Part shown: piece after piece, positions 58,749 through 62,745 of the stretch | Layout: every line of letters starts with the position of its first letter | Numbering within the stretch: position 1 is the stretch's first letter | From: a bacterium | Lineage (GTDB): Bacteria; Vulcanimicrobiota; Vulcanimicrobiia; Vulcanimicrobiales; Vulcanimicrobiaceae | DNA length: 64,000 nt | Assembly (NCBI GenBank): GCA_021832345.1 | Contig: JAKBKY010000001.1 | Span: 210,385-274,384, forward strand | Reading direction: 5' to 3' | Notes under the pieces: generated by a model | Told to the model about the DNA's origin: nothing | Databases searched by the model: none | The model's input: the letters and a program-made list of their open reading frames with translations, nothing else | Translations under genes and position numbers: made by a program

Positions 58749-58769
58749 CCACAAACGTTCGATTTGGTG
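58749..58769. promoter_or_regulatory. Repeated motif copy 2 (AAACGTTCGATTTGG)
   Basis: CAC-AAACGTTCGATTTG-GTG, 25 bp beyond the stop codon of the leftward Vgb-type gene. It differs from copy 3 by one base inside the core. Confidence 0.4.
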
Positions 58770-58793
58770 CTCCGGCGGCGCGTAATCATGCCG

Positions 58794-59279
58794 CTACGGC
58801 GTGATCTTGCCGATCTTGTTGCCGCCCTCTTCGGTGAACCAGAGGTTGCCGTCCGGGCCCGTCGTGATGCCGCCCGTGATGCCGCCCGTGATGCCGCTCG
58901 AAACCCCGCCAGCCGGGTATTCGGTGATGACGCCGCTCGTGGTGATCTTCCCGATCTGATTGCCATTGACTTCGGTAAACCAGAGGTTGCCGTCCGGGCC
59001 TGTCGTGATGCCGAGCGGACTCGCGCCGGCCGTTGGCAACGGATACTCGGTGACCGTGCCGCTCGGCGTGATCTTGCCGATCTTGTTGCTGCCTTCGGTA
59101 AACCAAAGATTGCCGTCCGGCCCCGCCGCGATGCCGGCCAGCCCAGCGTCGGCCGTTGGGATCGCATACTCGGTGATGACGCCGCTCGGAGTGATCTTGC
59201 CGATCTTGTTGCCGTTGGATTCGGTAAACCAGAGGTTGCCGTCCGGGCCCGCCGTGATGCCTTCCGGCCGATTCTTCAT
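58794..59279 (-). CDS. Short Vgb/NHL-type beta-propeller repeat protein, probably a fragment
   Basis: 161 aa from the ATG at 59277-59279. It consists of four repeats of about 40 residues: GITAGPDGNLWFTESNGNKI followed by GKITPSGVITEY and variants. Virginiamycin B lyase-like propellers need six or seven blades and about 290 residues, so this is roughly half a propeller and it stops in the middle of a blade. Near 58870 a 12-bp unit coding GITG is repeated three times. No signal peptide. Probably a decaying gene or a piece of a larger oligomeric propeller. Confidence 0.6.
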   Translation of the reverse strand: MKNRPEGITAGPDGNLWFTESNGNKIGKITPSGVITEYAIPTADAGLAGIAAGPDGNLWFTEGSNKIGKITPSGTVTEYPLPTAGASPLGITTGPDGNLWFTEVNGNQIGKITTSGVITEYPAGGVSSGITGGITGGITTGPDGNLWFTEEGGNKIGKITP

Positions 59280-59407
59280 GGTTCCCCCTTCGGGTATGGC
59301 CGGATCGCTCCCCCTTTCGTCACCGTGCGGCGTGAGCGGCGATGAACGCTTGCAGGCGATCACGTACGTCACTCGGGGTTGCGTTCGGCGATGCAGTTCT
59401 TCTACAT

Positions 59408-59428
59408 CCACAAACGTTCGTTTTGGTG
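59408..59428. promoter_or_regulatory. Repeated motif copy 3 (AAACGTTCGTTTTGG)
   Basis: CAC-AAACGTTCGTTTTG-GTG, about 130 bp upstream of the Vgb-type start codon. The 296 bp between that gene and the IS element hold no other supported feature. Confidence 0.4.
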
Positions 59429-59640
59429 CGGTGACACCGCTGCACCACGCGAACACAGCGAGCCGAAGGGCTCGCTCGGGATACACTCCGTCGCGATGCG
59501 ACGCCTCGCCCCCTCGACCAACTCAGGGCAGGCTGAGCTCGGCGTGAGCATCCTAAAGGGCACTATCAGGCGCCCTTACCAGAAGCGCCGTAAAGCCCCG
59601 GCGTTCAGGCCGGGGATATAAGGCGCTAGGCGCGTAGCGC

Positions 59641-60030
59641 CTACAACGGAGTGCGCTGGTTTTCGATGTACTGCTTGATGATCGCCAGAGGCGCTCCTCC
59701 GCAGGAAGCGGCGAAGTAGCTGGGCGACCACAAGACGCCCTTCAAATAGCGCCTCACGAGAGCGGGGTACTGCTTGCGAAGCAGGCGCGACGAAACGCCC
59801 TTCAAGCTATTCATGAGTGCCGACAGGGCCGCTTTCGGCGGATAGTTCACGAGCAAGTGAACGTGATCGTCTTTCCCGTCGAACTCGGCGAGCGAAGCCT
59901 CGAAGTCGTAGCAGACGTTCTCGAAGATGGGCCGCATCGCGTCGAGGATCGCTTTGCTGAAGACATGGCGACGATATTTCGTAACAAAGACCAAATGAAC
60001 GTGGAGTGCGAAAACGCAGTGTGCTATCAT
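59641..60030 (-). CDS. tnpA: IS200/IS605 Y1 transposase
   Basis: 129 aa from the ATG at 60028-60030 (MIAHCVFALHVHLVFVTKYR). HUH motif H56-V-H58 in DDHVHLLVNYPP and catalytic Tyr121 in IIKQYIENQ. It cuts and rejoins single-stranded DNA at the subterminal hairpins. All catalytic residues are present. The upstream open frame to 60813 is antisense to tnpB and is not part of the gene. Intact, so the element may be mobile. Confidence 0.92.
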   Translation of the reverse strand: MIAHCVFALHVHLVFVTKYRRHVFSKAILDAMRPIFENVCYDFEASLAEFDGKDDHVHLLVNYPPKAALSALMNSLKGVSSRLLRKQYPALVRRYLKGVLWSPSYFAASCGGAPLAIIKQYIENQRTPL

Positions 60031-60036
60031 AAGGAT

Positions 60037-61227
60037 GTGACTCGTCGCCAGGGGTATCGCTTTCGACTCAAGCCGACGCAAGCTGAGGCTACGCTTTTGC
60101 GGCGGTTCGTCGGTTGCTCGCGCTTTGTATGGAACGAGGTGCTCGCGCTCAACGAACTGCGGCATGAGTGCGGCGAGAAGCGACTTGGATACAAGGCGAT
60201 GTGCGAGTATCTCGTCTATCTCAAGGACGAGTATCCGTTCTTGCGTGAGGTCCATTCCCAACCGTTGCAGCAGACGCTCAAGGACCTCGCCACGGCCTAT
60301 CAACGTGCGTTCGATCCGAAACTCTCGGCGCGATTCCCACGCTTCAAAAGGCGAGGACGCCCGCAAGGCATCCGATTTCCGCAGGGCTTCGCTTTCGATG
60401 GCAGCGGTGTCTCTCTGCCGAAGATCGGCTGGATTGGGTTTCGCAAGAGTCGCGAGATCGAGGGAACGCCCAAGAACGTCACGGCATCGAGCGACGGCAA
60501 CCATTGGTACGTCACGATTCAAGCCGAACGCGAAGTGAATGAGCCTGTCCACGCGTCGGACTCGGCGGTCGGAATCGACCTGGGCATAGTGCGGTTCGCC
60601 GCCCTTTCGGACTGCACGTTCGTCCAAGGCGCGAACGCTTTCAAGAAGCGCGAGAAACGTCTTGCGTTCTATCAGCGCCGGATGGCGCGCAAGGTGAAGT
60701 TCTCGGCCAATTGGCGCAAGGCAAAAACGAAGGTCACACGTATCCAACGCAAGATCGCGAATATCCGCAACGATATGCTCCATAAAGCCAGCACGACGAT
60801 CAGCAAGAACCACGTGGTCGTCGTGATGGAAGACCTGCGGATCACGAACATGACGGCTTCAGCCAGAGGGACGGTCGAAGACCCCGGCACGAATGTCTGC
60901 GCCAAGAGCGGGCTCAACCGGCGCATTCTCGATCAAGGCTGGGGCGAGTTCCGCCGTCAACTCGGCTATAAACTCGAATGGACCGGCGGGACGCTGCTGC
61001 TGGTCGATCCGCGCAATACGAGTCGAACGTGCGCGAACTGCGACCACGTCAGCCGAGAGAACCGGCAGACACAAGCGGCGTTTCGATGCGTCGCGTGCGG
61101 CCACGCGAGCAACGCGGATACGAATGCCGCAATCAACATCCTCCGAAGGGCCGGATCGGCCCGGATCGCCTGTGGAGATTCGCCGTTGGGCGAGTCTATG
61201 AAGCAGGAAACTCAGCGTGTCGCATGA
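60037..61227 (+). CDS. tnpB: RNA-guided nuclease TnpB
   Basis: 396 aa from the GTG at 60037 (VTRRQGYRFRLKPTQAEATL), 6 bp from the divergent tnpA start. RuvC-like catalytic residues D181 (GIDLGIV), E265 (VVVMEDL) and D361 (SNADTNAAIN). Zinc ribbon C332/C335 and C351/C354. The N-terminal wedge and REC parts are complete. TnpB uses an omega RNA from the element's right end to cut DNA lacking the insertion beside a target-adjacent motif, here expected to be TTAC. Confidence 0.93.
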   Translation: MTRRQGYRFRLKPTQAEATLLRRFVGCSRFVWNEVLALNELRHECGEKRLGYKAMCEYLVYLKDEYPFLREVHSQPLQQTLKDLATAYQRAFDPKLSARFPRFKRRGRPQGIRFPQGFAFDGSGVSLPKIGWIGFRKSREIEGTPKNVTASSDGNHWYVTIQAEREVNEPVHASDSAVGIDLGIVRFAALSDCTFVQGANAFKKREKRLAFYQRRMARKVKFSANWRKAKTKVTRIQRKIANIRNDMLHKASTTISKNHVVVVMEDLRITNMTASARGTVEDPGTNVCAKSGLNRRILDQGWGEFRRQLGYKLEWTGGTLLLVDPRNTSRTCANCDHVSRENRQTQAAFRCVACGHASNADTNAAINILRRAGSARIACGDSPLGESMKQETQRVA

Positions 61228-61274
61228 GCGATGCGTGGAAGAATCCTCGGCCTTCAGGCCGGGGAGTAGGTCAA
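61130..61274 (+). ncRNA. Predicted omega RNA (reRNA) of TnpB
   Basis: By analogy with other IS605 elements the guide RNA scaffold comprises the 3' end of tnpB and the right end, including the hairpin at 61245-61264. The guide would begin at 61275, which is the 3' end of hipA. The 5' boundary is only approximate; no promoter was identified. Confidence 0.45.
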
Positions 61275-62485
61275 GTGAGATTCATGCCGGTCTCGCTCAG
61301 TCGCGAGCCCTTGAGTCTGACACTCCTATTGGTGAAGGCACAAATGTGCGCATCTAGCGATGCACGATGCTGTTCAATGATTGGACCATCGAAATGCTTC
61401 CACGCCTCGCGCACCCGCTCGCTCATTTCCAAGGCCTCGCGGCGCACCATCGTGTACGGAAGCTGCGCGCGTTCTGCAAAGGCGCGCAAACGTCGTTCGT
61501 CGAGCACGTCGAGCGATTTGCTTTTACCGAACGAGAGGCCCAAATCGTGATCCAAGCCTGCAAAAGGCAGCGTCGTTACGTAGTCGTACGCCGGCGCAAG
61601 GATCGGATCGCGACCGTTCGGGTAGAGGAGGCTCCAATTCTTCAAGTGCATGTCCCCGTTACCGATTGCGGCGGAAAATACCACACGGCGGACGAACTCG
61701 CGTGCCTGCGCAAAGCCCGCGCGCTCGTTCAGCAGCCGTGCAACATCACTATACGTTCGGTTATCGTATTTCTCATGTGGAAACTGCCCGAACGCTTGGT
61801 TGAAATCTTCCGCGTGAATCCGTGCGCCTCCGGCGCGATCAAATCGCCGGATCGCGAGCGCTTTACCGTTGAGGTCGAAGGCGTCCGGTGCTCCCTGAAC
61901 GTGGCTCGCGTCGATGATACGGGTTTCCGGCACCTCGATGCCAACCATACGCGCCAGCGCGAGCATGGAGAACTCATTTTCCACCAGCCCCGGGAATTGC
62001 CCGGAGGAGATTTTTACAATCCAGTCCCCGCCTGCGCCATGCGCCGGGATCGTAAGGTAGTCGGCCTCCCCTAGTAGCGCGCTGAGTTTGAGTTGCACTC
62101 CTGGCAGCGCGAAGGTCAACGCATCTGCCGCCGGCGACTCGATGGGCTCTGTGGGTGAGAGCCGTACCGCACCAATGAGATCGCCGCCCAAGTATGCGAG
62201 TAATGGGAAGTCGCGATTGGGCGAGACGCGCAGATACCGTGCGATGATCGTGCGCAGCCCACCCTCGGGCAGGAGGTTTGAAAAGAATGGCGGGGCGAGG
62301 CGACGCGCACTCTGCGCCTCCTCGCGCAGGTTACCGAGATCGTCCAAGAAACTTTGGCTCAACACGGGCCGCGCATCATTTTCAACGTACTCTGGAGAAA
62401 AGGCAAAAACCGTGCGGTCGTTGACCAGGTGCGTCAGATATCCAACATGGGCATCGCCTAACTCGACCGCGAGCGTGCGGATCAC
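61271..62485 (-). CDS. hipA: HipA-family serine/threonine kinase toxin
   Basis: 404 aa. N-terminal subdomain GDAHVGYLTHLVNDRTVFAF, SQSFLDD and the PPFFSNLLPEGGLR motif; kinase domain with catalytic loop GNGDMHLKNWSLLY and the Mg2+-binding Asp in APAYDYVTT; IVKISSGQFPGLVENEF holds the ATP-site Lys and Glu. HipA kinases phosphorylate aminoacyl-tRNA synthetases such as GltX. The ATG overlaps the hipB stop by 4 bp. The TGA stop is formed by the IS right end; removing the IS restores a TAA at the same residue. Confidence 0.9.
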   Translation of the reverse strand: MIRTLAVELGDAHVGYLTHLVNDRTVFAFSPEYVENDARPVLSQSFLDDLGNLREEAQSARRLAPPFFSNLLPEGGLRTIIARYLRVSPNRDFPLLAYLGGDLIGAVRLSPTEPIESPAADALTFALPGVQLKLSALLGEADYLTIPAHGAGGDWIVKISSGQFPGLVENEFSMLALARMVGIEVPETRIIDASHVQGAPDAFDLNGKALAIRRFDRAGGARIHAEDFNQAFGQFPHEKYDNRTYSDVARLLNERAGFAQAREFVRRVVFSAAIGNGDMHLKNWSLLYPNGRDPILAPAYDYVTTLPFAGLDHDLGLSFGKSKSLDVLDERRLRAFAERAQLPYTMVRREALEMSERVREAWKHFDGPIIEQHRASLDAHICAFTNRSVRLKGSRLSETGMNLT

Positions 62486-62745
62486 GGCACGCTCGCGATG
62501 ACTTCGCGGACCAGCGCAAGCACCTTGCGTGGGACGAGCTGCGGTACAAGATCGAGCGCAGCGGCGAGTTGCGTGAAGGTCGATAGTCGCAGATCAGCGC
62601 CGCGTTCGGCGAGCGACACCGTGGCTTGCGTGACCCCAGCCTGCTGGGCCAGCACTGCCTGGCTCAGGCCCGCTCGTAGACGCGCTGACCTCAAGCCCTC
62701 GCCCGTATATGGTACAGCATATATCATGCTTGGATTATACGCCAT
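62482..62745 (-). CDS. hipB: HipB-type XRE antitoxin
   Basis: 87 aa from the ATG at 62745, or 81 aa from the ATG at 62727. The shorter form is favoured because TATAAT (62731-62742 region) lies inside the first codons of the longer one. Helix-turn-helix: LRSARLRAGLSQAVLAQQAG then VTQATVSLAERGADLRLSTF. It binds HipA and represses the operon. hipA follows with a 4-bp overlap. Confidence 0.85.
   Translation of the reverse strand: MAYNPSMIYAVPYTGEGLRSARLRAGLSQAVLAQQAGVTQATVSLAERGADLRLSTFTQLAAALDLVPQLVPRKVLALVREVIASVP
62716..62730. promoter_or_regulatory. Palindromic operator candidate at hipB
   Basis: AGCAT and ATGCT flank 5 bp, just downstream of a TATAAT -10 box on the minus strand and over the second hipB ATG. 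Position suits autorepression by HipB. Confidence 0.5.

What the first reader, a model, noticed from the sequence alone, without database searches (positions are those of the whole stretch)
59576..61280. IS608-like element inserted exactly at the hipA stop codon
TTAC precedes the element and TCAA ends it. On the hipA strand TCAA gives Thr-TGA; removing the IS rejoins AC to GTAA and gives Thr-TAA. So hipA keeps the same C-terminus with or without the IS. The TnpB guide would then be the hipA 3' end, making hipA alleles without the IS the target.
Basis: partly seen in the sequence, partly recalled or inferred. Interest (0 to 1): 0.55.

Follow-up and report, generated by a model that had tools for sequence, protein, structure and literature searches.

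The report
Jumping gene that swaps stop codons
A small bacterial jumping gene has landed exactly on the stop signal of a neighbouring toxin-kinase gene, hipA, and put a stop signal of its own in its place, so the protein is unchanged; related elements do the same or nearly the same at other genes, including one in laboratory E. coli.

Summary
The element is window 59580-61274, preceded by TTAC and ending in TCAA, with AAAG and GAAT at the feet of its two hairpins, as published for IS608. Other copies in the same genome fix the ends: 5 of 5 left ends read follow TTAC, 8 of 8 right ends read are TCAA. On the hipA strand ACG-TAA (empty) becomes ACT-TGA (filled).

This is not a one-off. The second full copy does the same to an M48 peptidase gene, and 6 of 18 right ends in the phylum sample lie on a stop codon. 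E. coli IS609 (target TTAT) supplies the stop of ydcO in MG1655, of yfeD and of yedK; I read IS-free alleles of all three.

The reason is simple: target and right end carry a stop codon in the same phase on the bottom strand. 6 of 18 is far above random TTAC sites (3.7%) but not significantly above non-genic ones (21%), so loss of gene-breaking insertions suffices as explanation.

The TnpB guide should match the hipA 3' end. No IS-free hipA allele with the target was found in 147 genomes, so cutting of rival hipA alleles stays inferred.

The parts
59576..59579 (+). TTAC, target tetranucleotide kept in the left flank (complement GTAA: the TAA of IS-free hipA)
   Evidence: role from PMC5934647
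59580..59615 (+). Left end, with AAAG guide (59592-59595) and hairpin (59596-59615)
59641..60030 (-). tnpA, Y1 transposase (start taken at the ATG at 60030)
   Evidence: PF01797 E 6.4e-42; nearest solved chains include ISHp608 TnpA 2a6m, E 5.6e-20
60037..61227 (+). tnpB, RNA-guided nuclease of the TnpB family
   Evidence: PF01385, PF07282, PF12323; ISDra2 TnpB 8bf8 E 2.6e-45
61175..61290 (+). Predicted 3' part of the right-end (omega) RNA
   Evidence: conserved among eight copies; Rfam HgcC match 30.3 bits, below its gathering score of 50; consensus fold with covariation term +2.02, no support from covariation; transcription not tested
61241..61264 (+). GAAT guide (61241-61244) and right hairpin
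61271..61274 (+). TCAA, right cleavage site and end of the element; its complement gives hipA's TGA (61271-61273)
61275..61290 (+). Predicted 16-nt guide, complement of the hipA 3' end
   Evidence: position by the ISDra2 rule; sequence
61271..62485 (-). hipA, HipA-family kinase gene whose stop codon is supplied by the IS
   Evidence: PF07804 E 7.6e-46 and PF13657; solved HipA relatives
62482..62745 (-). hipB-like HTH gene overlapping hipA by 4 nt
   Evidence: PF01381 E 2.6e-9; coordinates

Best explanation
The element is an IS200/IS605-family transposon (Y1 TnpA plus TnpB) with IS608-type ends. TnpA inserts 3' of TTAC. On the bottom strand TTAC reads G-TAA and the right end TCAA reads T-TGA, both with a stop codon in the same phase. 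An insertion at a gene that ends NNG-TAA and faces the right end therefore turns it into NNT-TGA: the gene keeps its length and often its last residue (ACG to ACT, Thr, for hipA). Such sites are about a fifth of the non-genic TTAC sites of this genome, so insertions that survive selection are expected on stop codons again and again. The RNA from the right end would carry the complement of the gene's 3' end as guide; the filled site escapes cutting because TCAA stands where the TTAC motif would be, while the joint left by excision restores TTAC plus target and can be cut and refilled. Shown: ends, stop exchange, recurrence, IS-free alleles of three E. coli cases. Inferred: activity of TnpA and TnpB, the RNA, the cutting.
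For: Ends agree among copies and with the IS608 scheme. Stop exchange at hipA and at the M48 peptidase of the second full copy (CGG-TAA to CGT-TGA). 6 of 18 sites exact: hipA, M48, MeaB, zinc dehydrogenase, MarR-like gene, one frame without Pfam match. Pseudomonadota: TraI_2, RsmD-like and DUF58 genes end on the right end (TTAC flank read for TraI_2). E. coli IS609: yfeD GCA-TAA to GCT-TGA; ydcO CGA-TAA-TAA to CGA-TAT-TGA; yedK GTT-TGA-TAA to GTT-TGT-TGA. Background 41 of 195 non-genic TTAC sites are such stops.
Against: No IS-free allele of this hipA was found, so the empty hipA site rests on joined flanks. Of the six exact sites the left flank was not seen for two (L134, L141) and reads TTAT, not TTAC, for meaB; the MarR-like frame has coding signal on both strands. 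The two complete mini-elements are not on stops. Among 54 right ends from other bacteria, frames of 100 codons or more number 8 in the stop phase and 5 and 11 in the other phases, so no excess there. ydcO and yedK gain one residue, so the exchange is not always neutral. The near-stop cases (4, 12, 15 nt past a stop) are not explained by the tetranucleotides.
Confidence: 0.8

Rival explanations
1. Active targeting: TnpA reaches gene 3' ends or terminators more readily (for example because DNA is single-stranded there), so stop codons are hit more often than other harmless sites.
For: Three more sites lie 4, 12 and 15 nt past a facing gene's stop, against 3 of 195 non-genic TTAC sites within 20 bp. 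In 50 kb of MG1655 only 4 of 126 non-genic TTAT sites are exact or tandem stops, yet 5 of 8 IS609 sites opened have a facing CDS ending on the right end.
Against: 6 of 18 against 21% gives P 0.16. The E. coli figure is biased: 7 of the 12 records opened were chosen because another CDS overlapped the match. No excess of the stop phase in the 54 other right ends.
Confidence: 0.12
2. The insertion truncated a longer hipA, and the new stop merely closes a shortened frame.
For: Five family homologues at 44-50% identity have tails reaching 7-10 positions further.
Against: The left flank TTAC supplies TAA in this phase, the element requires TTAC, the tails do not align, and the two nearest homologues end 12 residues earlier.
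Confidence: 0.04
3. The IS has been taken over by the hipBA module, with the right-end RNA or TnpB regulating hipA from its 3' end.
For: tnpB and hipA converge and the predicted guide is the complement of the hipA 3' end.
Against: The same arrangement occurs at unrelated genes; IS and hipA are not linked in the relatives whose 3' flank was printed.
Confidence: 0.04

Closest known systems
IS608 (ISHp608) of Helicobacter pylori
   Same: TTAC target, TCAA right end, AAAG and GAAT guides (PMC5934647, passages); related Y1 TnpA (2a6m)
   Different: different sequence and host; stop-codon insertion not mentioned in the passages seen
IS609 / insQ of Escherichia coli
   Same: TnpA and TnpB genes head to head, TCAA right end, supplies stop codons of facing genes, ydcO in MG1655 included
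   Different: target TTAT with AAAA guide; ydcO and yedK gain one residue
ISDra2 TnpB and its right-end RNA
   Same: TnpB relative (8bf8); model for guide and TAM (PMC8612924, passages)
   Different: target TTGAT
IStrons
   Same: also make insertions in or at genes harmless; most start with a stop codon (PMC4227781, passages)
   Different: group I intron splices at the RNA level; here a stop codon is exchanged in DNA at a gene end

Membership tests
IS200/IS605 family, IS608-type ends | Y1 TnpA of the IS200 type | tested here: met
   PF01797; 2a6m E 5.6e-20
IS200/IS605 family, IS608-type ends | TnpB with OrfB and zinc-ribbon/RuvC-end domains | tested here: met
   PF01385, PF07282, PF12323; 8bf8
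IS200/IS605 family, IS608-type ends | Subterminal hairpins with guides AAAG and GAAT, TTAC flank, TCAA end, no target duplication | tested here: met
   scheme from PMC5934647
IS200/IS605 family, IS608-type ends | Excision and insertion as single-stranded circle | not testable with these tools
   inferred from the family
TnpB / omega-RNA nuclease system | Right-end RNA with guide from the flank | tested here: inconclusive
   conserved right end; HgcC match below gathering score; no covariation support
TnpB / omega-RNA nuclease system | Cleavage next to the TTAC motif | not testable with these tools
   needs an assay
HipBA toxin-antitoxin module | HipA kinase domains with an adjoining HTH antitoxin gene | tested here: met
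   PF07804, PF13657, PF01381; toxicity not tested

The most novel reading that the evidence does not exclude
The phase match of stop codons in target (TTAC or TTAT, complement G/A-TAA) and right end (TCAA, complement T-TGA) is itself selected: it makes gene 3' ends safe landing sites, keeps the filled site free of the TAM, and gives TnpB guides taken from gene ends, so that IS-free copies of the host gene, resident or incoming, are cut and refilled.
Probability: 0.15. Interest if true: 0.75.

Novelty: new member of a known kind. Interest (0 to 1): 0.5.

Why it matters
It shows how a common class of transposons can abut genes with little or no harm, and why some annotated genes, ydcO of E. coli MG1655 among them, have a stop codon that belongs to an insertion sequence. 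It gives a testable rule: any NN(G/A)-TAA gene end is a possible near-neutral landing site for TTAC/TTAT elements, and the TnpB guide taken from it matches a gene's 3' end. The listings of paper searches (open-access library only; some listings capped) showed no report of this; most subscription journals are not held.

Tried and rejected
Empty hipA site: the genus holds one genome; hipA relatives in 99 family genomes and 80 named loci were compared at the 3' end; the 20-nt TAM plus target is absent from 147 genomes. Truncation of hipA: judged unlikely.

Sites dropped or left open among the 18: L149 (276-codon frame ending on the right end) dropped as a shadow frame (coding score 0, no Pfam match); L144 (79 codons to a contig end) left open and not counted as exact. 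Both stay in the denominator. Among 54 other right ends, frames L173, L190, L195 and L198 were not tested against Pfam and L180 had no match; none is counted as a gene. Of 47 right ends counted only the 36 listed were read.

For E. coli no rate is given: 12 records were opened from the 60 rows listed, 7 of them because another CDS overlapped the match; they hold 8 distinct sites, 5 with a facing CDS that ends on the right end; IS-free alleles were read for 3 of the 5. The two plasmid cases (L248/L249 and L250) may be truncated genes.

Terminator and promoter scan of 59400-61400 found nothing. Consensus fold of the right end gave no covariation support. No structure was predicted.

Full report
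The element. Window 59580-61274 carries tnpA on the minus strand (59641-60030) and tnpB on the plus strand (60037-61227), starts six bases apart. Pfam gives Y1_Tnp for TnpA and three OrfB/TnpB domains for TnpB; among the nearest solved chains are ISHp608 TnpA and ISDra2 TnpB. The ends follow the IS608 scheme as stated in PMC5934647 (passages): TTAC before the left end, AAAG at the foot of the left hairpin, GAAT at the foot of the right hairpin, TCAA at the right end.

Are the ends right? The own genome (2.34 Mb, the only one of its genus held) has a second full copy at 87% identity, two mini-elements (317 and 315 bp) and partial copies. Left ends read start after TTAC in 5 of 5 cases; right ends read are TCAA in 8 of 8.

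The stop exchange. Filled, hipA ends CTC ACT TGA; with flanks joined it ends CTC ACG TAA. It follows from the tetranucleotides: the complement of TTAC is GTAA, that of TCAA is TTGA, so a gene ending NNG-TAA comes out as NNT-TGA. Because the TTAC flank closes this phase by itself, a coding frame that reaches the right end in this phase must have ended there before insertion. Homologues do not settle it: the two nearest (62-63% identical) end 12 residues earlier, while five at 44-50% identity (L017, L018, L020, L021, L028) have unaligned tails reaching 7-10 positions further (listing capped at 70 rows, 3 of them the window itself).

Recurrence in the same lineage. The second full copy sits on the stop of an M48 peptidase gene (CGG-TAA to CGT-TGA), two bases from the stop of a convergent gene that looks like a cyclase (my reading). 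A right-end pattern scan of 147 phylum genomes gave 14 right ends in 9 genomes; with L002 and L005 and L134 and L135 there are 18 sites. Six are exact: hipA, M48 peptidase, MeaB GTPase (PF03308), zinc dehydrogenase (PF00107), a MarR-like winged-helix gene (weak Pfam support, coding signal on both strands), and a 273-codon frame with coding signal but no Pfam match. Left flanks seen for these: TTAC at hipA, M48 and the MarR-like gene, TTAT at meaB; not seen at the other two. Three further sites lie 4, 12 and 15 nt past a facing stop: an ABC-F-like gene (my reading), a glycosyltransferase and a lactonase-like gene. The other nine are inside genes, intergenic or undecided.

More than expected? 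A codon-usage gene caller on the window and 19 stretches (444 kb, 420 genes, GC 62%) put 928 of 1123 TTAC sites inside genes, 41 on NNG-TAA stops and 154 elsewhere outside genes. Against all sites 6 of 18 has P 3e-5, against the 195 non-genic sites P 0.16; 5 of 18 gives 4e-4 and 0.32; 2 of 2 full copies 0.001 and 0.04. Loss of gene-breaking insertions is therefore enough; no special aim at stops is needed.

Other bacteria. Related TnpB (under 60% identity; 50-54% in the 60 rows listed) occurs in 1768 plasmid records. The twelve records opened all read GGATGTCAA at the right end. In 54 right ends (18, 36 of 47) three genes with Pfam support end on the right end: TraI_2 on a Methylophaga plasmid (TTAC flank read), an RsmD-like methyltransferase and a DUF58 protein. 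Frames of 100 codons or more number 8 in the stop phase and 5 and 11 in the other two, so there is no excess here.

E. coli IS609. The right-end query matches 4176 places in 2891 of 5426 genomes. IS609 stands after TTAT and has AAAA where the others have AAAG, as base pairing of guide and target would ask. Facing genes that end on its right end: yedK, yfeD, ydcO, a plasmid gene called hypothetical or ddrA (right end TCAC there) and a head-processing gene. In MG1655 the annotated IS609 (1503161-1504908) contains the stop of ydcO (complement 1504905-1506080), and an IS-free strain has the same two flanks joined at TTAT. yfeD shows the pure exchange, GCA-TAA to GCT-TGA. ydcO and yedK have tandem stops: the IS removes the first and supplies the second, adding one residue, Tyr or Cys. 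Sites not of this kind: a TetR-type gene cut in two, and intergenic sites by yeaQ and between traF and traH.

TnpB. By the ISDra2 findings (PMC8612924, passages) the guide would be 61275-61290, complementary to the hipA 3' end, and the TAM would be TTAC. The filled site has TCAA there and should be spared. The target is seen nowhere else in 147 genomes at up to 2 mismatches. Refilling of the excision joint fits; killing of IS-free hipA alleles is possible but unseen. PMC11870625 (abstract and passages) reports a TnpB gene drive on plasmids for this kind of element. The right end is conserved and has a sub-threshold match to Rfam HgcC here and in L133, but covariation gives no support.

Print. 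The listings showed no paper on IS605-family ends supplying stop codons; the passages of PMC7290912 and PMC9956272 do not mention it. The nearest idea is that most IStrons start with a stop codon (PMC4227781, passages).

Noticed in passing
L004 1249-1569 and L005 1501-1819 (own genome): Two mini-elements of 317 and 315 bp with intact TTAC/TCAA ends but no genes; the flanks of the first read like a gamma-glutamyltransferase gene (my reading). They do not sit on stop codons.
   Followed up: partly
L140 (genome G051): A copy with left end, tnpB and right end but no room for tnpA: a tnpB-only form of the same element.
   Followed up: no
L136 about 1126-1300: In genome G052 the stretch before the right end is made of tandem copies of a unit like GCAGCCTGCTGGGTCGCAGAC in place of the usual tnpB 3' end.
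   Followed up: no
L007 and L009 (own genome): Two right ends share an identical upstream stretch and part exactly after TCAA: a second, diverged element family in the same genome.
   Followed up: no
L248 and L249: IS609-like copies on E. coli plasmids end in TCAC instead of TCAA; the complement GTGA still gives a TGA stop to the facing gene.
   Followed up: partly
window 58750-58770 and 59409-59429: Two near-identical 21-base stretches CACAAACGTTCGWTTTGGTGC flank a virginiamycin B lyase-like gene (58794-59486, PF24684).
   Followed up: no
L018 and L088: Same hipA identity, tail and 3' flank: genome G070 of the window's family matches a record named Candidatus Eremiobacterota bacterium, a hint at the window's lineage.
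   Followed up: no
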